37,405 nucleotides of DNA from an uncultured Clostridium sp. Lineage in GTDB: Bacteria; Bacillota; Clostridia; Clostridiales; Clostridiaceae. Position numbers and translations under genes: made by a program. The notes under the pieces were generated by a model, which worked only from the letters and a program-made list of their open reading frames with translations, was not told where the DNA came from and searched no databases. Of the stretch, positions 3,834 through 26,182 are shown piece after piece. The DNA lies in contig UQFE01000023.1 in NCBI GenBank assembly GCA_900540255.1, forward strand, positions 1-37,405, in the 5' to 3' direction. Within the stretch, counting starts at the first letter, position 1, and the number at the start of each line of letters is the position of its first letter.

Positions 3834-3886
3834 AAACCTCATTTATTTATGATACGTTTCTCCGTAACTACTCTAAATGAGGTTTT
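3834..3886. repeat. SCC-like att site 3 (E3/E4 junction)
   Basis: The minus-strand core is GAAACGTATCATAAATAAAT followed by GAGGTTT. It matches the rlmH end at 26,154-26,182. The opposite arm AAATGAGGTTTT (3875-3886) pairs with AAACCTCATTT to form a hairpin, giving inverted repeats at the element junction. Confidence 0.8.
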
Positions 3887-3943
3887 GCCACTTTATTCTT
3901 TTATCTATTATATATAATTATGCTATAATTCCCACGCTACAGT

Positions 3944-4477
3944 TTATTTTAATAGATCATTTATTATTGAAGCTAATTTCTCAGGTTCATATGTTGGGGC
4001 AAATCTGGAAATAATATTACCATTTTTATCCACTAAAAATTTAGTAAAATTCCATTTTATATCTTCTCCATCAGTTTTAAACCCTAGATCTTCAAGCTTT
4101 CCGTATAATAACTTTGATTCTTCATCATCTTCTGCTTGTGGTGCTTCTGATTTTAAAAACTTATATAAGTCTGAAGCATTTTCTCCATTTACTTCAATTT
4201 TAGCAAAAGTTTCAAAAGTTGTTCCATATGTTAATTTGCAAAAACTTGATAACTCAGCATCACTTCCTGGTGCTTGTTGGAAAAATTGATTACATGGAAA
4301 ATCTAATATTTCAAAACCCTTATCTTTATATTCATCATAAATCTTTTGTAACCCTTCATATTGTGGTGTAAATCCACATCCACTTGCTGTATTTACTATT
4401 AAAAGAACCTTTCCTTTATATTTTTCTAAAAGTATTTCTTCTCCATTTGTCTTTTTTACTTTAAAATCATATATCAT
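3944..4477 (-). CDS. glutathione peroxidase-family protein, Cys type, 177 aa
   Basis: This thiol peroxidase of the GPx family reduces peroxides, most likely with thioredoxin as donor since the trx genes adjoin. The catalytic set is visible: Cys in NTASGCGFTPQY (about residue 34), Gln in FPCNQF (about 70) and Trp-Asn in IKWNFTKF (about 141). The peroxidatic residue is Cys, not selenocysteine. An insertion near residues 116-133 (EAPQAEDDEESKLLYGKLED region) makes it longer than its paralogue at 5707-6183. It is the last gene of a five-gene operon-like run and has its own AAGGAG site. Confidence 0.88.
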   Translation of the reverse strand: MIYDFKVKKTNGEEILLEKYKGKVLLIVNTASGCGFTPQYEGLQKIYDEYKDKGFEILDFPCNQFFQQAPGSDAELSSFCKLTYGTTFETFAKIEVNGENASDLYKFLKSEAPQAEDDEESKLLYGKLEDLGFKTDGEDIKWNFTKFLVDKNGNIISRFAPTYEPEKLASIINDLLK

Positions 4478-4492
4478 AATTTTTTCTCCTTC

Positions 4493-4804
4493 TTATAAAT
4501 GTTTCTCAATATTTTCTTTAATCACCTGTTTAGGTGAAAATCCTATTAATCTTTGAACTTCTTGACCTTTTTTTAATAATACTAATGCAGGAATATTAGA
4601 TATATTATATTGTTCTGCAATATCCATACTGTTATCAACGTTAACCTTTATTATGTTAATTTTATCTTCAAATTCAGCTTGTAACTCATCCAATATTGGT
4701 GAAATCATTTTGCAAGGTCCACACCATTCTGCAAAAAAATCCACTAAAACCATATCTTTTTCAATTTCACTTTTAAATTCATTACTATTAACTACTTTCA
4801 TCAT
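4493..4804 (-). CDS. trxA: thioredoxin, 103 aa
   Basis: A complete thioredoxin fold with the WCGPCK active site (residues about 28-33) and the cis-Pro segment SNIPALVLL (about 70-78), of standard length. It would recycle the two adjacent peroxidases. GAGG lies 8 bases before the first of two ATGs, and the gene starts 4 bases after the reductase stop, so they are almost certainly co-transcribed. It is probably a second, mobile trx copy in the host. Confidence 0.93.
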   Translation of the reverse strand: MMKVVNSNEFKSEIEKDMVLVDFFAEWCGPCKMISPILDELQAEFEDKINIIKVNVDNSMDIAEQYNISNIPALVLLKKGQEVQRLIGFSPKQVIKENIEKHL

Positions 4805-4807
4805 AAA

Positions 4808-5686
4808 TTATACCTCTTTATTTTTTCTTTTTATTTGCTCTATATAAGACACAGCTGATAATGCTGCTATATTTCCTTCTCCTGCTGCCTTAATATATTG
4901 ATATGGAGTACCAACTATATCTCCTGCAGCATAACAACCTTCAATATTTGTTTTCATTGTTCTATCAACTTCTACATGATTGTTTTCAATTTTTAAACCT
5001 GGAACTAATTGTCCTGGTGATATACTATCTCTTAAAATAAATACCCCATCTGTTTCAATTTCACTATTTTTAAGAATAAGTTTTTTAACTGAACTATCTC
5101 CTACTATTTCCACTGGAATATCCTTTATTATTTCAATAGATGAATCAACTTCTATTTCTTGCTTATACATTGGCACATAATATACCTTTGATGCTATTGT
5201 TCCTATAAAATTTGCTTCAGCTTCTTCATGCTTATTATAAGCAATTATTGTTACGACTTTATCTTTATATAAAGGAGCATCACATGTTGCACAATATCCT
5301 ACCCCTTTACCTAAAAACTCTTCTTCCCCCTTAAATGGCTTACCAAAATTAACTCCTGTAGCTAATATTATTGAAGTAGCTTCATACATTTTGTCATTTA
5401 CCATTAAAGTAAAATAATCTCCCATAGCATAAATGCTATTCACTTTTTCTTCTGTTATTTCAATATCCATTGCTTTTAAATGATTAGCAAATTCATCTCT
5501 TATTTCTACTCCACTTTTTCCATAAAAACCTAAATAATTATTTATCTTATGAGCCTTTACAAGTTTTGTACTTATTTCCTTACTTCCAAAAATAATAAAT
5601 CTTTTATTTCTTATCTTTGCATTTAATGCTGCTGATATTCCAGCTGTTCCACTTCCTATTATTGCAATATCATATCTTTCATTCAT
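4808..5686 (-). CDS. thioredoxin reductase-like flavoprotein, probably ferredoxin-linked type, 292 aa
   Basis: The FAD-binding loop IIGSGTAG (about residues 9-16), the redox pair CATC (about 132-135) and the C-terminal GCYAAGDI FAD motif are present. The second nucleotide domain is unusual: where NADPH-dependent enzymes have GGGxSA the sequence reads IIAYNKHEEA, and the HRRxxxR motif is replaced by YYVPMYK. The protein is also short (292 against about 310 aa). Clostridia have ferredoxin-dependent flavin thioredoxin reductases that lack exactly these motifs, so that type fits best. Electron donor is inferred. The gene lies 20 bases after the upstream peroxidase. Confidence 0.8.
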   Translation of the reverse strand: MNERYDIAIIGSGTAGISAALNAKIRNKRFIIFGSKEISTKLVKAHKINNYLGFYGKSGVEIRDEFANHLKAMDIEITEEKVNSIYAMGDYFTLMVNDKMYEATSIILATGVNFGKPFKGEEEFLGKGVGYCATCDAPLYKDKVVTIIAYNKHEEAEANFIGTIASKVYYVPMYKQEIEVDSSIEIIKDIPVEIVGDSSVKKLILKNSEIETDGVFILRDSISPGQLVPGLKIENNHVEVDRTMKTNIEGCYAAGDIVGTPYQYIKAAGEGNIAALSAVSYIEQIKRKNKEV

Positions 5687-5706
5687 TTTATCATTACCAC
5701 CTATAA

Positions 5707-6183
5707 TTATTTTAATAATTTTTTAATATCCTCTTCAATTTTTAATGGCTTTACTGTAGGTGCATATCTTTTAACTACATTTCCTTCTGAATCAATAAGA
5801 AATTTTGTAAAATTCCATTTAATGTCTTTACTCAATAAACCTTTTTTCTCATTTTTTAAGAACTTATATAATGGATGTGCATTTTCTCCATTTACCTCAA
5901 TCTTTTGGAACATATTAAATGTAACTCCATAGTTTAAAGAGCAGAACTCTTGTATTTCTTCATTGCTTCCTTTATCTTGATGTGCAAACTGATTGCAAGG
6001 GAATCCTAAAATTTCTAGACCTTCTTCTTTATATTTCTTATTTAATTGTTCTAATTCAGTAAATTGTGGTGTTAACCCACATTTACTTGCTGTATTAACT
6101 ACTAATACAACTTTACCTTTAAATGCTTCCATCTTAACTTCTTGCCCATTCATTTTTTTTGCTGAAAAATCATAAAATTCCAT
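5707..6183 (-). CDS. glutathione peroxidase-family protein, Cys type, 158 aa
   Basis: A compact GPx-family thiol peroxidase with Cys in [12 protein letters not shown] (about residue 35), FPCNQF (about 71) and IKWNFTKF (about 125). Length is standard. AAAGGAG precedes the ATG. An ohrR-type operator copy (6209-6227) lies directly upstream, identical over 25 bases to one in front of ohrR, so this peroxidase and the genes after it are probably derepressed together with ohrR. It shares only about half its residues with its paralogue at 3944-4477, so the pair is not a recent duplication. Confidence 0.9.
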
Positions 6184-6208
6184 ATTTTATCTCCTTTTAA
6201 TTTTATCA

Positions 6209-6227
6209 AATTTAATTTTATTCAATT
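6209..6227. promoter_or_regulatory. OhrR operator candidate 2, before gpx
   Basis: AATTTAATTTTATTCAATT is an 8+3+8 palindrome with one mismatch. It repeats exactly at 6771-6789, within a 25-base identical block. It lies between ohrR and the peroxidase operon. Confidence 0.65.
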
Positions 6228-6310
6228 AATTATTCTAAATTTATAGAATTTGCTACATACACATTTAATTAAAAGATCAATTCTAATTAAATGTATATTT
6301 CAACAAATTC

Positions 6311-6742
6311 TTACTTAAATGTTGCTAATAAATTATCTAACAATCTCTTTAGCTCAACAACATCTTCTATGTTCTTGCCAAACTTACAATACATTTTCTC
6401 TGGAACCTCAATGATTTCCTCCTTCATTTTTCTTCCTTTTTCAGTAACCTCCACAATAACTACTCTATCATCATCCTTATCTCTATATTTATCTATTAAT
6501 TCCATTGAAAGTAGCTTTTTTAATACAGGAGTAAGAGTTCCTGAATCTAAATGTAGTTTTTGCCCCATTTCCTTTACCGTTATCTTTTCATACTCCCATA
6601 CAACTAACATAGCAATATATTGAGTGTATGTAAGTCCATATTTATCTAACTGTGGTTTATAAGTTTTTATTACTTCTCTTGAGGCTGCATATAATGAAAA
6701 ACATAACTGATTATCTAATTTCATTTTCTCATATTTACCCAT
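6311..6742 (-). CDS. ohrR: OhrR-type MarR peroxide-sensing repressor, 143 aa
   Basis: A MarR-family repressor whose N-terminus DNQLCFSLYAASREV carries the single redox Cys (residue 14) of the OhrR subgroup, followed by the winged helix (KEMGQKLHLDSGTLTPVLKK, about 58-77; wing DKDDDRVVIVEVTEKG, about 89-104). OhrR binds operators until organic peroxide oxidises that Cys. It is the first gene of the E3 cassette, with a strong promoter (6802-6830) and an operator just downstream of the -10, so it should repress itself and the adjacent peroxidase operon. Confidence 0.9.
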   Translation of the reverse strand: MGKYEKMKLDNQLCFSLYAASREVIKTYKPQLDKYGLTYTQYIAMLVVWEYEKITVKEMGQKLHLDSGTLTPVLKKLLSMELIDKYRDKDDDRVVIVEVTEKGRKMKEEIIEVPEKMYCKFGKNIEDVVELKRLLDNLLATFK

Positions 6743-6770
6743 TATAATTCCCCTTTTTTAAATTTTTTCA

Positions 6771-6830
6771 AATTTAATTTTATTCAATTAATCTTGTTAT
6801 TATATTATTACTATTCACCACTTTTGTCAA
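6771..6830 (-). promoter_or_regulatory. ohrR promoter and operator
   Basis: TTGACA (6825-6830), a 17-base spacer and TAATAT (6802-6807) form a good sigma-A promoter reading minus. The palindrome AATTTAATTTTATTCAATT (6771-6789) lies about 13 bases past the -10, over the start of transcription, where a bound repressor would block. Confidence 0.75.
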
Positions 6831-6866
6831 GTGTAAATTAATATAAATATATTTTTTAACTCTTTA

Positions 6867-6881
6867 TTATTACTTATGGTA
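6867..6881 (-). repeat. half att-like scar
   Basis: The minus strand reads TACCATAAGTAATAA, resembling the rlmH end TACCATAAGTAAATG without its flanks. It is the counterpart of the copy at 3764-3778. Confidence 0.45.
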
Positions 6882-6901
6882 GTATATTTTCAATTACAAA
6901 A

Positions 6902-6938
6902 ATAGCCTTAGGCAAGTTATACCAATACCTAAAGCTAT
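6902..6938 (-). terminator. hairpin next to att2
   Basis: Arms ATAGCCTTAGG and CCTAAAGCTAT (one mismatch) are followed by T residues on the minus strand. It is homologous to the hairpin at 3797-3833. Confidence 0.65.
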
Positions 6939-6993
6939 AAACCTCACTTACTTGTGATACGGTTCTCAGTATAACAGATAAGCGAGGTTTTTT
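6939..6993. repeat. SCC-like att site 2 (E2/E3 junction)
   Basis: The minus-strand core GAACCGTATCACAAGTAAGT is followed by GAGGTTT, identical to att1 through these bases. The inverted arm AAGCGAGGTTTTTT (6980-6993) pairs with AAACCTCACTT as an element-end repeat. Confidence 0.82.
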
Positions 6994-7031
6994 AATTTAA
7001 CTTATTTATCATATCATTATACATATCATTT

Positions 7032-7499
7032 CTAGCTACAAATATCTTCAATCATATCTGCCACTTCATTATTAGTAATTACAGTATCTACTTCCTTTAA
7101 ACTATTATAATCAACGTATATATCTTCTTTAAATTTTATAATTGCTATTAATTTACTTATTATTAATCCTATAAATATTATACAAATAGATTCTATTTGT
7201 ATAATAACTAATGCTTTCCATTCATTATAATCTGCTAACTCTCCAAATAATGATAATCCATAACCTATAATTAAAAATATAAATGCTATTCTATTCATAT
7301 AAATATCTTTTGCTTTTTTTCGTAATTTTTCTTTCCTTAAGTACACTCTATTATTATCATCTCTTTCTGCAATATTACTTCCTGGAAAGTATGATTTTAT
7401 TACCTTTTTCTTAGTATTTCCTAAGCTCCATAATAATAATATTAAAGCTCCAGCTATTTGTAATGATATTGACATAGTATAAATATATATAGGCTTCAT
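7032..7499 (-). CDS. hypothetical membrane protein, 155 aa
   Basis: I do not recognise the family. It has an N-terminal transmembrane helix (about residues 5-27), a basic cytoplasmic loop containing SYFPGSNIAERDDNNRVYLR, two more helices (about 66-84 and 93-117) and an acidic C-terminal tail. The chosen ATG follows GGGAG by 9 bases; the GTG seven codons upstream has no site. It lies distal to the chimeric ccr remnant, the usual cargo slot, next to att2. Confidence 0.6.
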   Translation of the reverse strand: MKPIYIYTMSISLQIAGALILLLWSLGNTKKKVIKSYFPGSNIAERDDNNRVYLRKEKLRKKAKDIYMNRIAFIFLIIGYGLSLFGELADYNEWKALVIIQIESICIIFIGLIISKLIAIIKFKEDIYVDYNSLKEVDTVITNNEVADMIEDICS

Positions 7500-7558
7500 C
7501 TTCTTTTTCTCCCTTTTCACTTATATATTTTTTTATTATACTATATACTTTATTAAAA

Positions 7559-7957
7559 TTATATTTCAATATTTAAGTTTAGTGTCTTTATTCCAACATT
7601 TCTTAACATAAAAGAAGAAGGAGTACCCTTTATAGATAATCCTTCTTCTTTACTTATATAATCAACTAAGCTATCATTTATTTTTAGTTTTATTGAATCT
7701 ATTTCTCTTGCTTCATTTATAGTTATCTCTGATATTATCATATGAAGCAATTTCTTATGTTGCTCTCTAGTTGTACTTTCTGTTAGAACTTTACTGAAAT
7801 TCTCTAATATACTCCCACCTAAGTCTAATTCTATATCTCTATCTGCTCCATAGTTTTCATTCAGTACATCTATTGTTGCTTTTATACCTTCAATTACTTC
7901 TGTTGGTATATTATTTACTTCTAGTAATTGACTTTTCTTATAAATCTTCTTCATCAT
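7559..7957 (-). pseudogene. chimeric ORF: SCC core small gene fused to ccr 3' end
   Basis: Residues 1-49 (KSQLLEVNNIPTEVIEGIKA region, then ENYGADRDIELDLGG) are homologous to residues 4-47 of the E1 core protein at 22,835-23,173 (PVEVINNLISTIALLDKNYG then ERDINNDLGG). From SILENFSKVLTES onward it matches the last 80 residues of the recombinase, ending PSSFMLRNVGIKTLNLNIEI. An in-frame deletion of the whole core between the two genes explains this. The fusion is open and has an AGGGAGG site, so it may be translated, but a function is unlikely. Confidence 0.85.
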
Positions 7958-7975
7958 TAATCCTCCCTAAAATAT

Positions 7976-8013
7976 AAAAACTTCTATATGTAATCCAATT
8001 ACACATAGAAGTT
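7976..8013 (-). terminator. hairpin terminator
   Basis: AAACTTCTATATGTAAT pairs with ATTACACATAGAAGTTT with one mismatch, with T-rich sequence following on the minus strand. It separates the 116-aa gene from the chimeric ORF. Confidence 0.75.
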
Positions 8014-8118
8014 TCTTGATAAGTAATATCTTTTATTCAATATATTATTCTTAACTATAATATATATTTATATTTTAGATTTATTTCGTAATACTTTAAA
8101 ATTATTCAATACTTAGTT

Positions 8119-8469
8119 CTATTTAGAAACTTTTTTATTTGTCATAACTATAATCATATTAATTATAAAAATAGTAAAACTCGTAGCTGAAATAAACCAG
8201 AGCCACTTATCCCAATATACCCAATTTAGGGCATTATTATCAGCTAAAACACCTAAAAACATCAGTCCACAAAACATCGCCAAACCGCATATCACATCGA
8301 CAATTAAATCAATAACCATAACTGCTTTATTATCTTTTGATATAGATTTTTTATTAAGATAAAGTGCTTTTAAAAAATTGATAATTATAACAAGGAACAA
8401 TGCTATGTATGTTACAAATATCCATATAAAATAATTCATAACATCGTCCAAAGGTTTAATTTCTATCAT
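8119..8469 (-). CDS. hypothetical membrane protein, 116 aa
   Basis: Three predicted transmembrane helices (about residues 10-33, 48-72, 86-108) with a basic C-terminus (MTNKKVSK). The central WVYWDKWLWF stretch is Trp-rich. I do not recognise a family. It has a GGGGGAAG ribosome site and is a single-gene unit among cargo genes of E2. A membrane immunity protein is one possibility, suggested only by its neighbours. Confidence 0.6.
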   Translation of the reverse strand: MIEIKPLDDVMNYFIWIFVTYIALFLVIIINFLKALYLNKKSISKDNKAVMVIDLIVDVICGLAMFCGLMFLGVLADNNALNWVYWDKWLWFISATSFTIFIINMIIVMTNKKVSK

Positions 8470-8596
8470 CTAACTTCCCCCTTACAATTTAATACATTTA
8501 TATCACGTAATAATACAATCATTCATCAAATATCTTTTATATTGTCATAGCTTATTAACCATAAAATAACAATTTCATTCAACTTCATCTAATAGT

Positions 8597-8610
8597 AAAA
8601 CTGAAATTTA
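8597..8610 (-). repeat. cargo-gene 3' motif, variant
   Basis: Minus-strand TAAATTTCAGTTTT begins at the stop codon of the 144-aa gene and differs by one base from the AAATTCCAGTTT core. Confidence 0.4.
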
Positions 8611-9042
8611 TCGTTCTAATTCTTTCAAGAAAAAACGTAACGACATTACTGTTTTAGATATCTTATATTTACTTTCTAAAGAAACTAATTCAGGATTTTC
8701 CACTAAATCATTAACTTCTTTTTCACTAACTCCTGACATCAATGCAATTGTTTCTGCCGATAGATTATGATATTCTAATAAAACTTGCAAAAATGCTCCA
8801 ATTTTTAAATCGGCATTATTTCTCCCTATAAGCTCGAGCATCATAATTAAATCAGACATCTTACCAAAGTTTTTAGAATTTTCAAATAGCATTTTTTCAT
8901 CTTTGCTTAAAATAACATCTTTTTTTACATCTAATAATTTTGAAAGTGTATCTACATTGAATTTGTATTTTTCAATCAATAGTTGCAATGTTTCCATTAC
9001 ATATTTGGACGTTACCACTTTTAAATCTTTAATTTCTTCCAT
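8608..9042 (-). CDS. hypothetical helix-turn-helix-like protein, 144 aa
   Basis: An all-helical protein. A segment near residues 90-113 (LEYHNLSAETIALMSGVSEK) reads like a helix-turn-helix, and residues 25-45 (KFNVDTLSKLLDVKKDVIL) look like a second, so it may carry two repeats of the same fold. There is no membrane segment. The chosen ATG follows GGGGAG by 7 bases; the upstream TTG has none. Similar small proteins occur beside secreted-toxin loci of Firmicutes, but I cannot name a family. Confidence 0.6.
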   Translation of the reverse strand: MEEIKDLKVVTSKYVMETLQLLIEKYKFNVDTLSKLLDVKKDVILSKDEKMLFENSKNFGKMSDLIMMLELIGRNNADLKIGAFLQVLLEYHNLSAETIALMSGVSEKEVNDLVENPELVSLESKYKISKTVMSLRFFLKELER

Positions 9043-9056
9043 ATTAATTCTCCCCT

Positions 9057-9099
9057 TCAAATTGGAATTTATTAAGTAGTTTAAAAGTCAAACTAGCTC
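9057..9099. repeat. module junction: 3' motif variant plus hairpin H2
   Basis: The minus strand holds AAATTCCAATTTG (about 9057-9069) and the hairpin GAGCTAGTTT / AAACTACTT (9075-9099). It occupies the whole gap between the SUKH-like gene and the 144-aa gene. Confidence 0.5.
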
Positions 9100-9121
9100 A
9101 TTTAAATTTGAAATTCCTCAA

Positions 9122-9586
9122 TCATTTTTTTAAATTAATAAATTTTAATTCTTTTTCAGCTTCTAATTTTGAACCATAAAATATAATTTCATTATATTGT
9201 TCAAGATTATTTTTCCAGTTATCAGTTCTTTCTAAGAAATTCTTAAAATCATTTGCAATTAGAAAACATTTTTTGTTTTTATTTATATAGCATATTGGTG
9301 AATCACCTTCTAAATTTGTTGTTGAACCAATAGTTCCAATTAATCCACCTTCACTATCTGTTGCAAAAACATCTACTTGAGGAACTGTATAAAATGATAA
9401 TTTAGGAATATTATCATCAAAAATAAAATGTATATCATAATCATCAGCATATTGTTGATAATTTTCATTTTTTTCACTTAAACTCATATGATAAACAGTA
9501 GTACCTACTGAAATAACCTCTTTATCTTCTACAAATACACATAAACTCTTCTCTAGTTCTGTTACATCTAAATATACTTTATTCAT
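9122..9586 (-). CDS. SUKH/SMI1-KNR4-like immunity-type protein, 154 aa
   Basis: An acidic soluble protein. The segment VDVFATDSEGGLIGTIGSTT, followed by PICYINKNKKCFLIANDFKN with FLE, resembles the core of SUKH (SMI1/KNR4) domains, which commonly serve as immunity proteins against contact-delivered toxins. No toxin gene adjoins, so it would be an orphan immunity gene. I start it at the internal ATG behind GGATGGG; a TTG seven codons upstream lacks a site. It lies between hairpin modules H3 and H2, as a single-gene unit. Confidence 0.55.
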   Translation of the reverse strand: MNKVYLDVTELEKSLCVFVEDKEVISVGTTVYHMSLSEKNENYQQYADDYDIHFIFDDNIPKLSFYTVPQVDVFATDSEGGLIGTIGSTTNLEGDSPICYINKNKKCFLIANDFKNFLERTDNWKNNLEQYNEIIFYGSKLEAEKELKFINLKK

Positions 9587-9614
9587 TTCCCATCCATAAA
9601 TCCCCAATCCAGTC

Positions 9615-9640
9615 GAGTAGTTAAAAAATCAAACCCCCTC
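9615..9640. repeat. module-start hairpin H3
   Basis: GAGTAGTT pairs with AAACCCCCTC imperfectly in the same pattern as H1 and H2, about 30-55 bases upstream of the SUKH-like gene. Confidence 0.45.
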
Positions 9641-9748
9641 AAATAATAATACATTTATTCATTACTTCATATTTTTATTGTACCATATTATTCTATTTTA
9701 AATAAATATATCAAGTTAGTATTTTACAATAGATTGATTTTTTTACAT

Positions 9749-9787
9749 AAAAACTCTTACCTGTATATTTAAATACAAGTAAGAGTC
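9749..9787. terminator. hairpin near att1
   Basis: ACTCTTAC and GTAAGAGT, with inner GTAT/ATAC pairs, form a stem of about 12 bp. It lies in the 379-base gap 9587-9965, which otherwise holds hairpin H3, att1 and one 3' motif and no gene. Confidence 0.55.
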
Positions 9788-9827
9788 TCAATTCTTATAA
9801 CTACCTTTATCTATTTACAAATTTAGT

Positions 9828-9884: not shown

Positions 9885-9895
9885 ATCTATTATAC

Positions 9896-20085: not shown

Positions 20086-20374
20086 ATTAGCTCCTCCTCA
20101 AATCAAGTTTGTAATGTTATTATATTTTCGTAATTCTAAATCTTCAAAGTCGATTTTAGACGATTTTCACTTTCCCAAAAATTTTATGCACTCTTTATGC
20201 ATTATTTTTGCATTATTATTCACTCGTAGCCCCTCCTTTTCCCATGCTATATGTTTTTTGAGCTCTTGCCCCTCCTTTAACGCCCCTTCCCCGATTTCAT
20301 GCTATGAATACACTATCTCTTGTTTGCTCGTTTTTTCTCAATTTTTCATTTTTTATTTATTATTTTGCAAAAAA
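20086..20374 (-). other. intergenic leader upstream of cch
   Basis: A 339-base gap (20,086-20,424) without a clear gene. The minus strand has three purine-rich GGAGGGG stretches (about 20,230-20,290), each resembling a ribosome site. One (AAAAGGAGGGG) precedes a GTG that would give an 18-aa peptide, and the frame around it is open for about 44 codons without ATG. It may be a decayed small gene or a long leader. Confidence 0.35.
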
Positions 20375-20412
20375 AAATATCTCTTAACCTATTATTATAT
20401 TAAGAGATATTT
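20375..20412 (-). terminator. terminator after zinc-ribbon gene
   Basis: AAATATCTCTTAA and TTAAGAGATATTT form a perfect 13-bp stem followed by nine T on the minus strand, directly after the TM2 gene. Confidence 0.85.
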
Positions 20413-20424
20413 AAAATATTAAAC

Positions 20425-20886
20425 CTATACTAATGTTTCTCCATTAGCATTATTCAATTTTCCTGTGAATATTTGAACTGCATCATATATAGCCCAAGCA
20501 TAGCTTACAAATGCTATAGGTGCAAAAACAAACATACCTAATATACATATTCCTAATTGTATGAATCCAACTTCCTTATATCCTAAATAGAATCTATGTA
20601 TTCCTAATACTCCTAAAAATACCGCTAGTAGTCCTGCAACTATCTTATTGTTATTCGAACTGCTTTCACTACCTTTACTTACACTACTTTTTATTTGATT
20701 AGTGAAGTTATTTACTGCTCCCTTTAGTCTTACTCCACAATTTAGACAAACTTCTGCTTCTCTATTCTTCACTTCTTGTCCACATTCTGGACAGTAGTTA
20801 TCTCCTTGTCCTCTATTTGTTCCACACTTTACACATATTACTGCTTTTGGATTGTTTAGTTCTTCTCCACATTGTCTACAATACAT
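20425..20886 (-). CDS. zinc-ribbon plus TM2-domain membrane protein, 153 aa
   Basis: Two zinc ribbons (YCRQCGEEL...CVKCG, about residues 2-23; YCPECGQEV...CLNCG, about 31-53) are followed by a linker rich in Ser/Asn and a TM2 domain (IVAGLLAVFLGVLGIHRFYL, then a second helix ending FVSYAWAIYDAVQIFTG). TM2 proteins are small membrane proteins with diverse, mostly unknown roles. The ATG sits behind GGAGG; the frame extends 19 codons upstream but that part overlaps the Mor-like gene and lacks a site. It overlaps that gene by 31 bases. Confidence 0.85.
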   Translation of the reverse strand: MYCRQCGEELNNPKAVICVKCGTNRGQGDNYCPECGQEVKNREAEVCLNCGVRLKGAVNNFTNQIKSSVSKGSESSSNNNKIVAGLLAVFLGVLGIHRFYLGYKEVGFIQLGICILGMFVFAPIAFVSYAWAIYDAVQIFTGKLNNANGETLV

Positions 20887-21161
20887 TCTTCTCTTCCTCC
20901 ATTTTCTTTTATCTTTAATTTGTTTATAACTTGCTGTACCCAATTACATGTATATCCAAGCTTTTTTGATATTTGTTTTATATTTTTTCCATTATAGTTT
21001 TTTATGATATACTCCTCTACATAAGATTTAGAATATAGTCTCATTGGAAATGTTACTTGTTGACCTCTGAAATTCTCATATATTTTCAATGTAACTTCTT
21101 CTCCTAGAATTTCTACCATTTCTTTATAAACTCCACTATAACTATCATATATTTTTTTCAT
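20856..21161 (-). CDS. Mor-like transcription activator, 101 aa
   Basis: EILGEEVTLKIYENFRGQQV then TFPMRLYSKSYVEEYIIKNY is the dimerisation core of the Mor/C family of Mu-like activators, and NGKNIKQISKKLGYTCNWVQ is its helix-turn-helix. Such proteins turn on middle or transfer genes. It is followed immediately by the TM2 gene and lies upstream of cch and ccr, so it is the best candidate regulator of E1 excision genes. Confidence 0.8.
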   Translation of the reverse strand: MKKIYDSYSGVYKEMVEILGEEVTLKIYENFRGQQVTFPMRLYSKSYVEEYIIKNYNGKNIKQISKKLGYTCNWVQQVINKLKIKENGGREECIVDNVEKN

Positions 21162-21283
21162 TCATTATCTTTATTTACCCCCTTTCAATTCTCAATTAAA
21201 TAATAACTTGATTACGATTATTTGTAATGCTGATTATAATTGTGATTTTCTCTTGTAAAATCACATATTAAAAGTAATTTGAT

Positions 21284-21361
21284 TTAGTTGTTTCCTTCTA
21301 TACCTACAGCTATAACTGTAATAACTGTTCCTAGTATCTTTAACACCTTTACAATATTCAT
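21284..21361 (-). CDS. small hydrophobic peptide, 25 aa
   Basis: MNIVKVLKILGTVITVIAVG then IEGNN: a single short hydrophobic helix. AAAGGAGG lies 8 bases before this ATG (an ATG two codons earlier is too close). Its leader GAAAGGAGGTGATGAAGATG nearly repeats the leader of the amber-stopped frame at 17,901. Function unknown; a small membrane peptide or toxin is possible. Confidence 0.5.
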   Translation of the reverse strand: MNIVKVLKILGTVITVIAVGIEGNN

Positions 21362-21394
21362 CTTCATCACCTCCTTTCAGTATTTAGATAGATA

Positions 21395-21703
21395 CTAATA
21401 TTCATGAGGAAATAGCATTGTAGAATATTCCCCACTATCTATTACATATACTTTAATCACATCATCTATCTGAATATCTCCAATTTCTATTTCATATGTA
21501 CATGAATACTCTGGAACTTCTTGACTTTGATTTATTACAATCTTATTTCCTTCTTTTCTTATCTTGAAAACTTGCAAGTAGTCCACTTCAACATTTCCTT
21601 TATCCTTTAGCTTATCAATCATGCTCCACATTATTAGTTGTAGTCTTATATCTACTTTCTCATTTATTCCTCTTGTTACATATCTGTTATTTTTCTTGAA
21701 CAT
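21395..21703 (-). CDS. DUF960 family protein, 102 aa
   Basis: MFKKNNRYVTRGINEKVDIR, LQLIMWSMIDKLKDKG, VEVDYLQVFKI and the ending GEYSTMLFPHEY are the hallmarks of DUF960. This family is one of the recurrent small genes beside ccr in staphylococcal SCC elements, so its presence supports the SCC assignment. Biochemical role unknown. Its start overlaps the small gene upstream by 17 bases. Confidence 0.82.
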   Translation of the reverse strand: MFKKNNRYVTRGINEKVDIRLQLIMWSMIDKLKDKGNVEVDYLQVFKIRKEGNKIVINQSQEVPEYSCTYEIEIGDIQIDDVIKVYVIDSGEYSTMLFPHEY

Positions 21704-21782
21704 ATCTTTCTATCTCCTTATTGTTAGTTTTTACTTCTAGCTTTCCAGCTCTTATTACACCTACACATAGAATTCTCTTCAT
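21687..21782 (-). CDS. small hypothetical protein, 31 aa
   Basis: MKRILCVGVIRAGKLEVKTN then NKEIERYVQEK. GGAGG lies 8 bases before the ATG, and the 3' end overlaps the DUF960 gene, suggesting coupled translation. I do not recognise it. Confidence 0.45.
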   Translation of the reverse strand: MKRILCVGVIRAGKLEVKTNNKEIERYVQEK

Positions 21783-21806
21783 ACACATTTCCTCCAAATT
21801 CAAAAA

Positions 21807-21830
21807 AGCCAACCATCAATATGGTTAGCT
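21807..21830 (-). terminator. terminator after 201-aa gene
   Basis: AGCCAACCAT and ATGGTTAGCT (one mismatch) around CAAT, followed by TTTTTT on the minus strand. Confidence 0.75.
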
Positions 21831-21831
21831 C

Positions 21832-22437
21832 TTATACTTCTATTTCTGAATATAGATATTCATCTACTTTATTTTCAAATATACATACTGGATCTAAATC
21901 TAATACATATTCTACATCTTCATCTGCAAGTAACTCATCTATAGCTTCACTCTTACTTACTCCTTCTACCCAATATGATATTATTGTATCTTTATCAAAC
22001 AATCTATCTACATGCCATTCATCATCCATCATATTTTCTAGTGCTACTCTAGCAAGGATTTTTAAGTTAGAACCTTTCTTATATATTAAATGGTTTCCAT
22101 CAATCAATATATAGTCATTATCTTTCAAGTCATCATAGTATTTTATTACTTCTTTTATAGATACCTTTAGTTCTGTATTATCTTTTATTCCTAGGTACAT
22201 AGAAATTATATCTGCTCTAATTTCTACATATTCTTCTGCTAGTTCTTTTGCTATTTCTAATGTATTATCAAAATCTTTATAAAGCTCTTCTTTAAGTTCT
22301 TCATCTTCTATCAGTTTTATTAAATTTCCAATAATTTCTATATTTTCATTACTGACTTTACTATACTTTGCTATAACCTTATTTATTTCCTTCATAAGAA
22401 ATCTTTGTATTATATCTGAAAATTGCTTTGCTACCAT
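21832..22437 (-). CDS. hypothetical protein, 201 aa
   Basis: An acidic soluble protein, mostly helical in its first 120 residues (SNENIEIIGNLIKLIEDEEL, then KEELYKDFDNTLEIAKELAE), with an alpha/beta C-terminus containing NDYILIDGNHLIYKKGSNLK. No catalytic motif is evident. It has a GGAGAG site. It belongs to the run of small genes between the restriction-like genes and DUF960 and may be an element-specific regulator or anti-defence protein, but nothing in the sequence settles this. Confidence 0.6.
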   Translation of the reverse strand: MVAKQFSDIIQRFLMKEINKVIAKYSKVSNENIEIIGNLIKLIEDEELKEELYKDFDNTLEIAKELAEEYVEIRADIISMYLGIKDNTELKVSIKEVIKYYDDLKDNDYILIDGNHLIYKKGSNLKILARVALENMMDDEWHVDRLFDKDTIISYWVEGVSKSEAIDELLADEDVEYVLDLDPVCIFENKVDEYLYSEIEV

Positions 22438-22471
22438 TTTTCTTTACTCTCCTATCTTCTTATAAAATATA

Positions 22472-22511
22472 AAAAGTCTTAATCACTATTCTTATAGCAA
22501 TTAAGACTTTT
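22472..22511 (-). terminator. terminator after 101-aa gene
   Basis: AAAAGTCTTAAT and ATTAAGACTTTT form a 12-bp stem overlapping the stop codon of the 101-aa gene. Confidence 0.8.
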
Positions 22512-22815
22512 AAACTTGATTTATTTCTTGTTTTAACATTTCAATGAACTCATCTGAAAATACTTTTTTACTTATTGATTCTTTTATTAACTCTATTAGT
22601 TCTAGCTCTGTTACATCAAGACTTCTTGGAATATATGTTTCATCACCTCTTCTAGTTGCCTTGTAGACACAGAATCTTACTTCATCTCTCTTTAGCTCTT
22701 TGATGTAGATTTTCTCTATTGAGTATGTGTACTCTCCTTCTCCAACTTTTCCTTGATTTATTATCTTGCAGTATTTAGTTTCCTTGATTATCTTTTCTTC
22801 ACTCTTCTTACTCAT
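22510..22815 (-). CDS. hypothetical protein, 101 aa
   Basis: A small basic-acidic alpha/beta protein: a beta-rich start (YCKIINQGKVGEGEYTYSIE, KIYIKELKRDEVRFCVYK) and a helical end (TELELIELIKESISKKVFSD). GGGAGG lies 9 bases upstream of the ATG. It starts 20 bases after the 112-aa gene and is followed by a terminator, so these two are co-transcribed. No family recognised. Confidence 0.6.
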   Translation of the reverse strand: MSKKSEEKIIKETKYCKIINQGKVGEGEYTYSIEKIYIKELKRDEVRFCVYKATRRGDETYIPRSLDVTELELIELIKESISKKVFSDEFIEMLKQEINQV

Positions 22816-22834
22816 GTTATTGAACCTCCCTGTC

Positions 22835-23173
22835 TTATTCTATTAGAAACTTAGAAAGTTCTTCTGTTGTTACTACTACAATTGAAAAATCACTAGAAAG
22901 TAAAAATAGTGAAGAAGTCCAATTAACTCCTTCACTACATTCAATTATGTCTGTATATTCTGCTACTAATCCTTTTAACTTACCTTGCTTCAGCATTTCA
23001 ATATCAACGATATTTTCTACTATAACTACATATCCACCTAAGTCATTGTTAATATCTCTTTCCTCTCCATAATTTTTATCTAATAATGCTATTGTACTTA
23101 TTAGATTATTTATTACCTCAACAGGATATTTAACAATTTCACTTTTATCTTTTAAGCTATATATCTTTATCAC
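22835..23173 (-). CDS. conserved SCC-core hypothetical protein, 112 aa
   Basis: It contains PVEVINNLISTIALLDKNYG, ERDINNDLGGYVVIVE and a C-terminal LFLLSSDFSIVVVTTEELSK. The first half has a homologue in the chimeric ORF of E2, showing that this gene is part of the ancestral core and not recent cargo. The start is GTG behind GGAG. Function unknown. Confidence 0.65.
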   Translation of the reverse strand: MIKIYSLKDKSEIVKYPVEVINNLISTIALLDKNYGEERDINNDLGGYVVIVENIVDIEMLKQGKLKGLVAEYTDIIECSEGVNWTSSLFLLSSDFSIVVVTTEELSKFLIE

Positions 23174-23198
23174 TTAATCATCTCCTATATTATAATAA

Positions 23199-23230
23199 AA
23201 GAATTACATCTACTATAAGTTGTAATCCTT
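23199..23230 (-). terminator. weak hairpin between core and restriction-like genes
   Basis: AGAATTACA and TGTAATCCTTCT pair imperfectly; a T-rich stretch follows on the minus strand. Confidence 0.45.
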
Positions 23231-23257
23231 CTATTATATAATATATATTTATATTAT

Positions 23258-23509
23258 TTATCTTAACGTAAATACTTGATTTTCATATCTTATTATTTCT
23301 GTAGGAAATTTCCTATGACAATATAAATTCCTGCATCTTTGCTCATATCTTAATTCATTTGGTCTACTAGGTGATGGACTAAGGTCATGTGGTGTTAAAT
23401 TAAATGCTGCCCTAACAGCTCTTTTAAACTCATTTAATGTAACACTCCCCTCAGCTCTTAACTTTACCAATAAAAACTCTATCATATTATCTTCAGATAA
23501 ATTATTCAT
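23258..23509 (-). CDS. winged-helix-like protein of restriction locus, 83 aa
   Basis: Resembles the N-terminal domains of the two upstream proteins: DLSPSPSRPNELRYEQRCRN then LYCHRKFP aligns with their DLIINKNRKDTRFDQKVRNL then ISHRD. This is a winged-helix domain like that of Mrr-type restriction proteins. With no nuclease domain it may recognise DNA for, or control, the 265-aa partner. The third Met is chosen for its 7-base spacing from GGGAG; it overlaps the partner gene by 8 bases. Confidence 0.6.
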   Translation of the reverse strand: MNNLSEDNMIEFLLVKLRAEGSVTLNEFKRAVRAAFNLTPHDLSPSPSRPNELRYEQRCRNLYCHRKFPTEIIRYENQVFTLR

Positions 23510-24299
23510 CATCATTCTCCCTTCTTAAAATTGCTTTATATCCAATTGCTTGTAATCTAATTTTTTCTAAAAATTCGTTACCTGAAATTCTATATATTTG
23601 TCCACTTTTTTCTTGCATATCAAAATTATAAACTCTAACTATTTCAGCTTCATCACCATACATCTCCAAAAATAACCTCTCGTTTTCAGTTAAGAAAAAT
23701 GGTGTTTCTATTCCCCCTGTAGTAGTTTTTACTTCTAAAAATCTAACTTCTCCTATTTGATTGTAAGACAAGATATCATATCCTGCTCCATCACCATCAT
23801 CCTTTGCTACATGTCTAACCTTGCTACCTAAAATTTCACCTAAGCTTTCAGTTTCATGTTTTAACACGAAGAGTTCTCCTGCTTCTCCTATTTCCTTGTT
23901 TCTTTTATTCATTTCATCGAAATCTACTTTTCTTGCGTTAAAAGCTTTTTTCTTCTCTTTTCTAGTAGAATCTTTAGTGTCTTGTCCATAACTTGAAGTT
24001 GTTTCTTTTATATTTGTAGTTTTTCTTATTTCGGATTTAGATGTTAATATTCCAACTCGTCCATCTTTTCTATACTCAAAATATTTATATAAATCATTAT
24101 TATCTCTATGAGATATCATATTTCTAACCTTTTGGTCAAACTTAGTATCATTTCTATTCTTATTGATTATTAAATCCTCACCATCAGGTTGCATAATATC
24201 ATTAAGTATTTCTTTTAATTCTGTAGTGTTTAATTCACCGTACTCCTCTATAACCTTTATTGCCACTTCCATTATTTCTTGTTCAGTATAAAAGCTCAT
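23502..24299 (-). CDS. DUF3883 restriction-like nuclease, 265 aa
   Basis: An N-terminal winged-helix domain (about residues 1-75, with INKNRNDTKFDQKVRNMISH), a charged linker, then a DUF3883 domain: GEAGELFVLKHE, GAGYDILSYNQIGEVRFLEV followed by KTT. The Asp in GYDI and the Glu-Val-Lys form a PD-(D/E)xK-type nuclease signature. DUF3883 proteins occur in restriction and other defence loci. With the nearby Dam-family methylase this is the likely restriction enzyme of an R-M pair. Starts 1 base after the 153-aa gene. Confidence 0.75.
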   Translation of the reverse strand: MSFYTEQEIMEVAIKVIEEYGELNTTELKEILNDIMQPDGEDLIINKNRNDTKFDQKVRNMISHRDNNDLYKYFEYRKDGRVGILTSKSEIRKTTNIKETTSSYGQDTKDSTRKEKKKAFNARKVDFDEMNKRNKEIGEAGELFVLKHETESLGEILGSKVRHVAKDDGDGAGYDILSYNQIGEVRFLEVKTTTGGIETPFFLTENERLFLEMYGDEAEIVRVYNFDMQEKSGQIYRISGNEFLEKIRLQAIGYKAILRRENDDE

Positions 24300-24300
24300 A

Positions 24301-24762
24301 TTATTCCTCCTTTAAACTTAAATATCCATTTTCATAAATACAATAATCCAATAATCCATTACCATCTCTATGTGATATTAAATTTCTTACCTTTTGGTCA
24401 AATCTAGTATCTTTCCTATTTTTATTTATTATCAAATCTTCATCAGATAATTTCATAGTTTGTTTTAGATACTCTCTTAACTCTTTTATTGATATAACTT
24501 TTTTGTACTGTAACACCTTAATAGTCTCTTCCATTATTTCTCTTTCAGTAACTGGATATACTTTTGATAATACTTGTCCTATTTCATCTTGCGATTTAAA
24601 TAGCTTTAAAAACTCACTTTCTAATATATATGGAGTATCTGATAAGTATGTGTACTTTATTCTTTCTTTATCTAATGTAGCCATCAAATCTTTAGTTTGA
24701 ATATTAAACTCATTAGCAATATCTTTTAAATTAAAAAAATTATTATTCCCTATCTTAATCAT
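24301..24762 (-). CDS. winged-helix protein of restriction locus, 153 aa
   Basis: First gene of the restriction operon. The N-terminal 55 residues resemble a small recognition domain (FFNLKDIANEFNIQTKDLMA), and the C-terminal half repeats the winged-helix domain of the 265-aa protein (DLIINKNRKDTRFDQKVRNL then ISHRDGNG). It has no nuclease motif. It could be a specificity or regulatory subunit. AAAGGAGG precedes the ATG, and a near-consensus promoter with an inverted repeat lies upstream. Confidence 0.65.
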   Translation of the reverse strand: MIKIGNNNFFNLKDIANEFNIQTKDLMATLDKERIKYTYLSDTPYILESEFLKLFKSQDEIGQVLSKVYPVTEREIMEETIKVLQYKKVISIKELREYLKQTMKLSDEDLIINKNRKDTRFDQKVRNLISHRDGNGLLDYCIYENGYLSLKEE

Positions 24763-24786
24763 TTTTACCTCCTTTCTGGAATTGTA

Positions 24787-24840
24787 GGAATTATTCGATT
24801 TCTATAATTCCATTTTATTCCCTGACCCAATTTTTGTCAA
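24787..24840 (-). promoter_or_regulatory. restriction operon promoter with operator-like inverted repeat
   Basis: TTGACA (24,835-24,840), 17-base spacer and TAAAAT (24,812-24,817) form a strong promoter. GGAATTAT and ATAATTCC (24,787-24,811, 9-base spacer) form a perfect inverted repeat just past the -10, placed like a repressor site. Confidence 0.75.
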
Positions 24841-24862
24841 CAAAAAAAAAAGACGCTTAATC

Positions 24863-24895
24863 AAAAAAAAAAAAAAGAGAAGTCTAAACTTCTCT
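24863..24895 (-). terminator. terminator after methylase gene
   Basis: AGAGAAGT and ACTTCTCT around CTAA, followed by about 14 T on the minus strand; the stem overlaps the stop codon. Confidence 0.85.
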
Positions 24896-26024
24896 AATAA
24901 TTCGTAATTAATAAGTGTTTTACTTTTTTATCATTTCTATCCATAAAGCTTACTCTGTAATCTTTATCGAAGCCTCTGACATTTATATTTTGCTGATTTT
25001 CATAAAGTTCAGCAATAAACTCCGTATTTTTTATAATTAGCATAAATCTACATTGGCATTGAAAAATTAAGTAATTAGCTAATCTCCTTTGGTCATCTTG
25101 TTCAAATGTATTATTTGCATATTCTGAAAATCCTCCATCATACGGTGGGTCTAAAAACATAAAGTCATCTCTATTAATAGCTATTCTATTTAAAAATTCC
25201 TCAAAATCTAAATTAAATAATGTAGAAGCATTTAATTTTTCGTTTAAGTCATTATTTCTAATATACTCAATTTTATTTATAAAATTTTTATTATTATAAC
25301 TTAATCCACCATAAGGAACATTGAATTCACCCCTAGCATTGTATCTAAACATAGATGAATAACAGAACTCTCTTAAATAAAAGAATAATGCTATATGTAA
25401 TTCATCATCTATTCCATATTCATTTCTCTTATTATATAAATATCTATAGTATGTATATACTGATGCTCTTATTCCTGATTCAAAATTGCTTTGATAATCA
25501 TCATCTGGTAAATCTCCATCTTTTAATTCTTTTCTTTTTATATTTTTTATTTTCGACAAAAGTGATTTCTTAAATTCAATTATTAACCTATCTGAATTTA
25601 CATTTAAACTTTCTGGTAAATCTTGAAGTATCATATTTACTCTATCATTTATGAATAGGTTAACTAAATCTTTTAATTCTTCCTCATTTACTTCATTTCT
25701 TTTATAACTATCATACATTTCTCTAATAATGTGGTAAACTTCTCTTGAGAACAATCCCATAGAATTCCAATAAGCCCATATATCCAATAAATAATTATAA
25801 AAAATTTCATTTCTATCTTGTATCATCCTATATAAACTGATTAGCTCTGTTGAAAAATCATTAAGATATGCACTCCTATATTCATTTCTATCTAAAGATA
25901 AAAAACATGCTCCTCCACCTAAAAAAGGTTCTATATAATTTTCTATATTATTAGGTATATATTGATGTATAATCCCTACTTCTTCGCTTTTTCCTCCAGG
26001 CCATTTCACAAAGGGTCTTGTCAT
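24894..26024 (-). CDS. Dam-family (D12 class) DNA adenine methyltransferase, 376 aa
   Basis: Motif I-region RPFVKWPGGKSE and YIEPFLGGGACFLSL lie at the N-terminus, with the catalytic motif FLDPPYDGGF at about residue 290: the alpha-type order of D12 class N6-adenine methylases such as DpnM/Dam. It is longer than Dam (about 280 aa) because of a helical insertion between about residues 75 and 200, probably the target-recognition region. Start at ATG behind AAGGAG. It sits next to rlmH in E1 and would protect DNA against the linked restriction-like genes. Target unknown. Confidence 0.85.
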   Translation of the reverse strand: MTRPFVKWPGGKSEEVGIIHQYIPNNIENYIEPFLGGGACFLSLDRNEYRSAYLNDFSTELISLYRMIQDRNEIFYNYLLDIWAYWNSMGLFSREVYHIIREMYDSYKRNEVNEEELKDLVNLFINDRVNMILQDLPESLNVNSDRLIIEFKKSLLSKIKNIKRKELKDGDLPDDDYQSNFESGIRASVYTYYRYLYNKRNEYGIDDELHIALFFYLREFCYSSMFRYNARGEFNVPYGGLSYNNKNFINKIEYIRNNDLNEKLNASTLFNLDFEEFLNRIAINRDDFMFLDPPYDGGFSEYANNTFEQDDQRRLANYLIFQCQCRFMLIIKNTEFIAELYENQQNINVRGFDKDYRVSFMDRNDKKVKHLLITNY

Positions 26025-26153
26025 AAGTAACACTCCTTTTTTCTATATTCAATTGTATAAATATAATTAAATTCTTCTCACATTATACTTTATTGATAAA
26101 ACTAAGTAAAGTTATCGAATTTTTATCTAACCATACTTATATCCAATTTCAGT

Positions 26154-26182
26154 AAAAACCTCATTTACTTATGGTACGGTTC
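26154..26182. repeat. att0: rlmH 3' end, chromosomal attachment site
   Basis: The minus-strand sequence GAACCGTACCATAAGTAAAT followed by GAGGTTTTTAC spans the last five codons of rlmH and its stop. Staphylococcal SCC elements use the corresponding GAAGCGTATCATAAGTGA-type site at the end of the same gene. Copies recur at 9828, 6939 and 3834. Confidence 0.88.

What the first reader, a model, noticed from the sequence alone, without database searches (positions are those of the whole stretch)
3834..26182. Tandem array of SCC-like elements at the rlmH 3' end of a clostridium
Seen: the last codons of rlmH (minus-strand GAACCGTACCATAAGTAA then ATGAGGTTTTT) recur at 9828-9884, 6939-6993 and 3834-3886, and the DNA between copies forms units of about 16.3, 2.9 and 3.1 kb plus a fourth reaching the left edge. 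Known: staphylococcal SCC elements, including SCCmec, integrate at this same end of rlmH (orfX) through Ccr recombinases and stack in tandem. E1 has a CcrB-like recombinase, a Cch-like DUF927 helicase and DUF960, three known SCC core families. Inference: this is a clostridial SCC system of stacked elements, whereas the family is mainly described from staphylococci and relatives.
Basis: partly seen in the sequence, partly recalled or inferred. Interest (0 to 1): 0.93.

Follow-up and report, generated by a model that had tools for sequence, protein, structure and literature searches.

The report
Stacked SCC-type cassettes in a clostridium
Behind the rlmH gene of what is likely a Clostridium chromosome lie three DNA units and part of a fourth, set off from each other by copies of the last letters of rlmH, and they likely got there by the same recombinase cut-and-join that moves the staphylococcal cassettes carrying methicillin resistance.

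Summary
The last 18 nt of rlmH recur three more times on the same strand (0.01 expected by chance), giving units of 16.3, 2.9, 3.1 and at least 3.9 kb. The three inner copies are near-palindromes and the rlmH copy is not, as reported for enterococcal cassettes. E1 carries one large serine recombinase grouping with staphylococcal CcrB, a Cch-type helicase and DUF960. Only E1 has a nearly whole ccr, and a transposon has replaced its last codons; E2 and E4 hold ccr fragments and E3 none. Related recombinases occur in 18 of 68 searched genomes of the genus. In 11 of those genomes one lies 8-15 kb downstream of rlmH in the same direction. Blocks up to 7 kb are over 99% identical between species. 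Cassettes also sit at other sites whose left half resembles rlmH, which places the crossover at the dinucleotide GA and means the element carries the end of rlmH with it. SCC-type islands at rlmH outside staphylococci are already in print (Enterococcus, Bacillus and others). Less expected are the clostridial core-gene order and a stand-alone, predicted inactive recombinase domain beside ccr. Mobility today is untested.

The parts
26165..26647 (-). rlmH, the target gene; its last 18 nt (26165-26182) are the attL-type copy
   Evidence: no palindrome at this copy (dyad 7/23; fold z +0.68)
9856..26181 (-). unit E1, about 16.3 kb, the only unit with a nearly whole ccr
9827..9885 (-). att copy between E1 and E2, near-perfect palindrome around GA
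   Evidence: dyad 21/23; fold -34.7 kcal/mol, z -10.5
6965..9855 (-). unit E2, 2.9 kb, no whole ccr
6936..6994 (-). att copy between E2 and E3
   Evidence: dyad 18/23; fold z -6.7
3860..6964 (-). unit E3, 3.1 kb, no ccr; MarR regulator, glutathione peroxidase, thioredoxin reductase, thioredoxin, glutathione peroxidase
3831..3889 (-). att copy between E3 and E4
   Evidence: dyad 16/23; fold z -5.3
1..3859 (-). unit E4, cut by the window edge; ccr fragments, YrvL, peptidase S51, LytTR-DUF3021, Hol_Tox
14782..16467 (-). CcrB/CcrC-type large serine recombinase, 561 aa; C-terminal tail replaced by transposon sequence
   Evidence: NF047343 417.7 bits, NF047347 375 bits; tree
16614..17081 (-). 155-aa stand-alone serine-recombinase catalytic fold without the nucleophile serine (predicted inactive)
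17296..17829 (-). 177-aa conserved core protein of unknown function
17965..20085 (-). Cch-type replicative helicase (DUF927 plus Cch HTH)
   Evidence: PDB 5dgk, E 2.2e-49
20425..20943 (-). TM2/zinc-ribbon protein
20856..21161 (-). Mor-family transcription activator
21395..21703 (-). DUF960 protein
   Evidence: PF06124 83.1 bits
21832..22437 (-). conserved 201-aa core protein
22510..22815 (-). conserved 101-aa core protein
22835..23173 (-). conserved 112-aa core protein, also matched in Lachnospiraceae loci
23258..26033 (-). left cargo of E1: NOV_C protein, Mrr_N-like protein (below Pfam's cutoff), D12 adenine methyltransferase (restriction/defence type) and a small ORF
9966..10898 (-). right cargo of E1: APH-family phosphotransferase, below every named resistance cutoff
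11076..14838 (.). transposon in the ccr 3' end: terminal inverted repeats, 7-bp duplication CTTTATA, 638-aa transposase-like ORF
7559..7957 (-). ccr 3' fragment in E2 (recombinase residues 467-558)
660..2432 (-). ccr fragments in E4 (residues 56-88 and 77-201) with other genes between them

Best explanation
Behind rlmH lie three DNA units and part of a fourth, divided by copies of the rlmH tail, and they were likely placed one after another by Ccr-type serine recombinases as SCC elements are. Inferred mechanism: the recombinase joins a palindromic site on a circular cassette to the rlmH 3' end, exchanging strands at the dinucleotide GA that opens the shared 18-mer. The cassette's own left end supplies the next 16 nt (ACCGTAYCATAARTAA), so the rlmH reading frame is kept, and the far end gets a palindromic copy. 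A later cassette can enter at rlmH or at an inner copy, which stacks them. E1 would be the self-mobile unit (recombinase plus helicase); E2-E4 would be passengers needing a recombinase from elsewhere. Shown: the repeats, gene content, layout in relatives, shared blocks, sharp left junctions. Inferred: circular form, strand exchange, action on E2-E4.
For: Four same-strand repeats, 0.01 expected; palindromic inner copies, not at rlmH. Recombinase: 418 bits to CcrB and 375 to CcrC models, where staphylococcal CcrB itself scores 271 to CcrC and an outgroup recombinase 166/131; its 40-row clade is starred at 99/97 and, with one more row, groups with staphylococcal CcrB at 95/89. Cch and DUF960. In 68 genomes of the genus the recombinase is in 18 (21 places); in 11 of those genomes one place is on the rlmH contig, 8-15 kb downstream, same strand. 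A second att copy follows ccr in 9 of 9 ccr-bearing regions fetched and in 8 of 14 scan loci with rlmH (three loci are in both sets). Near-identical blocks across species: 7,018 nt 99.8%, 6,784 nt 99.5%, 2,923 nt 99.1%, beside RlmH identities of 82-96% to the window. One 118-nt left end is at 99-100% in 9 of 206 Clostridiaceae genomes; its junctions at rlmH and non-rlmH sites part company just left of GAACCG. The 25 sites classed as neither rlmH nor palindromic match the rlmH left half at 10.32 of 18 positions, control 6.18, sd 0.37, highest of 5,000 7.44. PMC10581047 (section 11, part 1) names GA as the CcrAB central dinucleotide.
Against: The recombinase misses the named CcrB/CcrC cutoffs (418 and 375 against 900), and Cch misses its own (252 against 700). 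The tree is rooted at the midpoint, and its tool warns of long branches and of unlike letter make-up in the CcrA and CcrB rows. SAUGI and DUF1643, which follow ccrB in staphylococcal elements, were not found, and DUF960 stands on the other side of ccr. Among copies of one otherwise near-identical left end, positions 9 and 15 of the 18-mer vary; a clean exchange at GA does not predict that. In L043 and L044 the second copy lies before ccr, and in 4 of 14 scan loci with rlmH none was seen within 2 mismatches. No clean empty site was shown: at the one secondary site examined, a relative has about 1.1 kb of other DNA there. The right chromosomal end lies outside the window. All ccr copies in the array are broken or altered.
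Confidence: 0.9

Rival explanations
1. Same origin, but the array in this genome is now stuck: the E1 recombinase lost function when the transposon replaced its last codons, and E2-E4 have no whole ccr of their own. This concerns present activity and is compatible with the best explanation of origin.
For: Transposon in the ccr 3' end with a 7-bp duplication; ccr fragments in E2 and E4. The lost tail is well conserved among the nine relatives aligned. The C. cuniculi relative's ccr also has an internal stop.
Against: The resolvase, recombinase and zinc-ribbon domains are matched over nearly their whole length; only the last 20 or so residues differ. A protein 100% identical over 93% of the query stands for 107 member sequences in the protein database. 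I first rated this 0.4 thinking the tail poorly conserved; one search shows otherwise, hence 0.45.
Confidence: 0.45
2. The repeats are dispersed palindromes or transcription terminators that happen to share the rlmH tail, and the genes between them were gathered by ordinary homologous recombination.
For: The inner copies fold into strong hairpins; homologous recombination could also swap cargo.
Against: The same copies bound recombinase-bearing units in several species. Left ends stay the same while the DNA left of GA changes with the site. Non-rlmH sites resemble the rlmH left half, which is not part of the repeat.
Confidence: 0.04
3. An integrative conjugative element or prophage that uses rlmH as its attachment site.
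For: Large serine recombinases are common in both; the Mor and helicase genes have phage-type relatives.
Against: No conjugation or virion gene family was found among the E1 proteins scanned (10 proteins were given to PHROGs), and units of 2.9-3.1 kb are too small.
Confidence: 0.03

Closest known systems
Staphylococcal cassette chromosome (SCC, including SCCmec)
   Same: rlmH 3' insertion, rlmH-tail direct repeats, palindromic far end, Ccr-clade recombinase, Cch helicase, DUF960, tandem and ccr-less units, restriction-type cargo
   Different: Clostridial host; one recombinase instead of CcrA+CcrB; no SAUGI or DUF1643 found; DUF960 and three unnamed core genes on the rlmH side of ccr; an extra stand-alone recombinase-fold protein
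Enterococcus cassette chromosome (ECC; PMC6222049, passages read)
   Different: ECC uses ccrAB; here one recombinase with the DUF927-type helicase
PolA-SSB primase islands of Bacillota (PMC10061031, passages and section 4 read)
   Same: Most lie downstream of rlmH with a serine recombinase and helicase; some are tandem; said to lack synteny with SCC
   Different: The paper places its C. difficile and C. perfringens examples in ssrA, not rlmH, with COG3378 helicases; it describes no array like this one in the passages I saw
CI ccrDE island of Staphylococcus brunensis (PMC10581047, passages and section 11 part 1 read)
   Same: SCC-type island at a site other than the rlmH end
   Different: There rimL is the target; here the same kind of element uses rlmH and rlmH-like sites

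Membership tests
SCC family | Inserted at the 3' end of rlmH | tested here: met
   relatives
SCC family | Bounded by direct repeats holding the rlmH tail, palindromic at the far end | tested here: met
SCC family | Recombinase of the Ccr clade | tested here: met
   Groups with staphylococcal CcrB, support 95/89, midpoint root, long-branch warnings. CcrC was not in the tree; NCBIfam scores 418 CcrB, 375 CcrC
SCC family | Recombinase passes the named CcrA, CcrB or CcrC equivalog cutoff | tested here: not met
   94, 418 and 375 bits against cutoffs 700, 900 and 900: kin of, not a copy of, the staphylococcal proteins
SCC family | Cch-type helicase in the ccr complex | tested here: met
   PF06048, PF18662; NF047345 252 bits, below its cutoff of 700; PDB 5dgk
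SCC family | SAUGI, DUF960 and DUF1643 genes after ccr | tested here: not met
   DUF960 present but on the other side of ccr; SAUGI and DUF1643 not found by Pfam among the E1 ORFs scanned; staphylococcal order
SCC family | Excises as a circle and restores the rlmH junction | not testable with these tools
   needs reads or PCR
SCC family (narrow sense) | Staphylococcal host | tested here: not met
   RlmH 96% to C. cuniculi and 95-96% in five other genomes of its genus; recombinase kin are Clostridium
Integrative conjugative element | Relaxase, coupling protein, secretion genes | tested here: not met
   none found in the E1 ORFs scanned with Pfam
Prophage | Virion and packaging genes | tested here: not met
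   none among the E1 ORFs scanned with Pfam; 10 proteins against PHROGs gave only helicase/primase, regulator and unnamed matches

The most novel reading that the evidence does not exclude
A clostridial branch of the SCC superfamily in which a single CcrB/CcrC-type recombinase works with a stand-alone, catalytically dead recombinase domain (16614-17081 and its relatives) that would pair with it to set direction or site choice, and which reads the half-site TTTAGAATTA...|GA both in rlmH and at many other places. It would then be a multi-site cassette system running through Clostridiaceae, with related elements in Lachnospiraceae.
Probability: 0.3. Interest if true: 0.8.

Novelty: new variant of a known kind. 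Interest (0 to 1): 0.6.

Why it matters
SCC elements made MRSA, and where their machinery comes from is still asked. These data give a recombinase-helicase-DUF960 cassette lineage spread through Clostridium, with related recombinases at rlmH in Lachnospiraceae, and near-identical copies in different Clostridium species, so clostridia would be a reservoir and exchange ground for the same kind of vehicle. The left-junction series lets the attB half-site and the crossover be read from natural insertions. The dead recombinase-fold protein beside ccr makes a testable candidate for a factor that steers a single-Ccr system.

Tried and rejected
E3 as a cassette found elsewhere: its redox operon occurs widely in Clostridiaceae (191 of 206 genomes match some part; the listed rows are mostly the thioredoxin reductase gene). 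In the 10 loci examined, from 8 genomes, no att copy bounds it; besides rlmH only weak 3-mismatch matches appeared. In one genome it lies about 12 kb downstream of rlmH with only the rlmH copy found. So E3 is an ordinary operon caught between att sites here.

First impression that the 638-aa ORF was a ribosomal-protection resistance gene: rejected, no Pfam, NCBIfam, PDB or PHROG match; its context is a transposon.

Shared sequence right after the rlmH stop in four genomes of the genus (L092, L094, L096, L103) as the native right flank: not used, because a similar sequence occurs elsewhere too (L092 against G008).

Empty site for the G007 secondary insertion: not clean.

Fold of the 112-aa core protein: confident model (pLDDT 90.3) but no Foldseek match in the PDB below E 0.04; this does not show a new fold.

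Homology of the 155-aa protein to serine recombinases by sequence alone is weak: hhalign probability 4%, E 0.011; Pfam Resolvase E 0.038, 3 of 8 members, with Rep_trans scoring better (E 0.0033). The case rests on the model and VIA-align. Foldseek's top rows were KaiC at low TM-score, with recombinase 3g13 at rank 9. P0133, which links it to a Resolvase match, looks like a fusion with ccr sequence and was not counted as evidence.

Searches covered the held library for prior reports. Nothing listed describes an rlmH cassette array in Clostridium, but several lists were cut (20 of 33 papers, 20 of 492, 10 of 22, 12 of 32), for most papers I saw only the listing, and subscription papers are mostly not held. 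A find in PMC7581432 gave no passage; PMC3068701 gave one passage, on recombinases of C. acetobutylicum in an older tree.
Full report
OBSERVATION. The tail of rlmH (GAACCGTACCATAAGTAA) is present four times on the minus strand within 3 mismatches, against 0.01 expected. RlmH itself is sure. Taken from the GA of each copy the units are E1 16.3 kb, E2 2.9 kb, E3 3.1 kb and E4 at least 3.9 kb. The three inner copies mirror themselves around that GA at 21, 18 and 16 of 23 positions; the rlmH copy at 7. Of 37,345 positions, 29 reach 15 and 4 reach 18. As RNA the inner copies fold with z -10.5, -6.7 and -5.3, the rlmH copy +0.68, so they might also insulate the units as terminators (inference).

CONTENT. 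E1, read away from rlmH: an adenine methyltransferase, Mrr_N-like and NOV_C genes; three small unnamed genes (112, 101, 201 aa); DUF960; Mor; TM2; a Cch-type helicase; a 177-aa gene; a 155-aa gene; the recombinase; then an APH-family gene that passes no named resistance cutoff. In the recombinase's last codons sits a transposon (11076-14838) with inverted ends and the 7-bp duplication CTTTATA. E2 holds ccr residues 467-558, E4 residues 56-88 and 77-201; none was matched in E3. E3 is a redox operon. These broken genes are described only.

RECOMBINASE. 418 bits to the CcrB model, 375 to CcrC, 94 to CcrA, all below the equivalog cutoffs. As yardsticks, staphylococcal CcrB scores 271 to CcrC, and an outgroup recombinase (L051) 166 and 131. 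In a 75-row tree (70 of 79 loci; 9 loci without an ORF of 430-700 aa, L001 among them, were dropped) the window protein lies in a 40-row clade, mostly Clostridium and Lachnospiraceae with Sporolactobacillus and Ammoniphilus (99/97), which with one Cohnella row joins staphylococcal CcrB (95/89), apart from CcrA and the more distant recombinases. The root is at the midpoint, and the tool warns of long branches and of unlike make-up in the CcrA and CcrB rows. CcrC was not at hand for the tree.

RELATIVES. A scan of named genomes found 135 relatives; the best 80 were kept, 79 distinct loci. Within these loci (up to 10-kb flanks) RlmH was matched at 50% identity or more in 14: L001, L006, L022, L024, L029, L030, L032, L033, L035, L036, L039, L043, L044, L046; one more match at 29% (L040) was left out. 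Of these 14, ten have a second copy of their own rlmH tail at 0-2 mismatches: after ccr in eight, before ccr in L043 and L044. None was seen in L024, L029 (one at 3 mismatches), L033 and L035; some of these loci are cut short. In 68 genomes of the genus RlmH is found in 65 and the recombinase (E 1e-100 or better) in 18, at 21 places; in 11 of those genomes one place is on the rlmH contig, 8-15 kb downstream, same strand. The other 10 places are on other contigs: left junctions outside rlmH were seen for G007 (second copy), G071 and G038; the rest are undecided. In the 9 ccr-bearing regions I fetched, an att copy follows ccr in each (G001, G002 and G003 are the genomes of L001, L006 and L022). 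In these maps a core order recurs, with genes missing here and there: rlmH (or another site), variable cargo, 112-aa, 101-aa, (201-aa), DUF960, Mor, replication genes, (177-aa), (155-aa), ccr, variable cargo, att.

EXCHANGE. G007 shares 7,018 nt at 99.8% with G008 and 6,784 nt at 99.5% with G033; a second element shares 2,923 nt at 99.1% between G007 and G046 and 2,875 nt at 98.2% between G003 and G007. RlmH of these genomes is 82-96% identical to the window's. The 118-nt left end of that second element is at 99-100% in 9 of 206 Clostridiaceae genomes.

CROSSOVER AND SITE CHOICE. In copies of this left end the sequence from GAACCG on stays the same (two synonymous third positions vary), and the DNA to its left is rlmH in some genomes and unrelated loci in others. 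So the element brings the end of rlmH with it. For more sites I fetched 40 short regions from the list, leaving out places known to be rlmH; 9 of the 40 gave no strict match. Over these, earlier loci and the fetched regions, att-like 18-mers found by a strict motif were sorted, duplicates removed: 44 at rlmH, 21 palindromic, 25 other. Two of the 25 (far ends in G007 and G002) look palindromic by eye but stayed in the count. The 25 match the rlmH majority left half at 10.32 of 18 positions, against 6.18 (sd 0.37, highest of 5,000 draws 7.44) at random offsets in the same upstream DNA; for TTTAGAAT it is 6.24 of 8 against 2.76. The left half is thus a likely recognition sequence, and it is not part of the repeat. 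PMC10581047 (section 11, part 1) gives GA as the CcrAB central dinucleotide and says CcrAB also acts at less conserved sites.

PRIOR WORK. ECC at rlmH with ccrAB, palindromic attR and circularisation: PMC6222049 (passages). Islands at rlmH in Bacillota, some tandem, non-syntenic with SCC: PMC10061031 (passages, section 4); its C. difficile and C. perfringens examples are in ssrA. PMC10581047 lists Mammaliicoccus, Macrococcus, Enterococcus, Bacillus, Geobacillus and Clostridioides difficile as hosts of rlmH islands. So the kind is known; the clostridial order, the site series and the 155-aa protein are what I did not find in the lists and passages I saw.

LIMITS. No genome is held for the window; the host is judged from RlmH and the recombinase. 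The right chromosomal junction is outside the window. No circle or empty site was shown.

Noticed in passing
window 11076-14838: A 3.8-kb transposon with terminal inverted repeats (GCAACGGGTTCCG...), many TGTGATTT-type subterminal repeats and a 638-aa transposase-like ORF with no Pfam, NCBIfam, PHROG or PDB match; it also carries a DUF6518 membrane protein.
   Followed up: partly
window 2487-2588: A 33-aa Hol_Tox (PF16935, 30.5 bits, cutoff 23.3) small hydrophobic peptide gene in E4, possibly a type I toxin-antitoxin locus.
   Followed up: partly
window 513-661 and 10892-11047: Two stretches beside the ccr remains of E4 and E1 are 82-84% alike up to the start of different cargo genes (YrvL and APH family), as if cargo were swapped at the ccr 3' end.
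   Followed up: no
window 22835-23173: The 112-aa core protein is matched from Clostridium to Lachnospiraceae loci; its confident model found no PDB match below E 0.04.
   Followed up: partly
L092, L094, L096, L103 just after the rlmH stop: A similar short sequence (CTCCAAATCTTTGATTTGG...GGCGAACTTACTC in L092) directly follows rlmH in four genomes of the genus; no Rfam match.
   Followed up: partly
206 Clostridiaceae genomes: 93 of 206 genomes match part of the cassette left-end query. Many listed matches cover only its att part (18-mer plus ATGAGGTTTT), often at several places in one genome, suggesting more cassette insertions than those with ccr; others match only the query's far end.
   Followed up: partly
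window 6936-6994 and 3831-3889, L022, G018: A class of left ends follows the att copy with a TAGCCTTAGG...CCTAAGGCTATTTTT hairpin, shared between species.
   Followed up: no
window 36846-37405: Six tRNA genes in a row with a duplicated stretch at the window's right edge.
   Followed up: no
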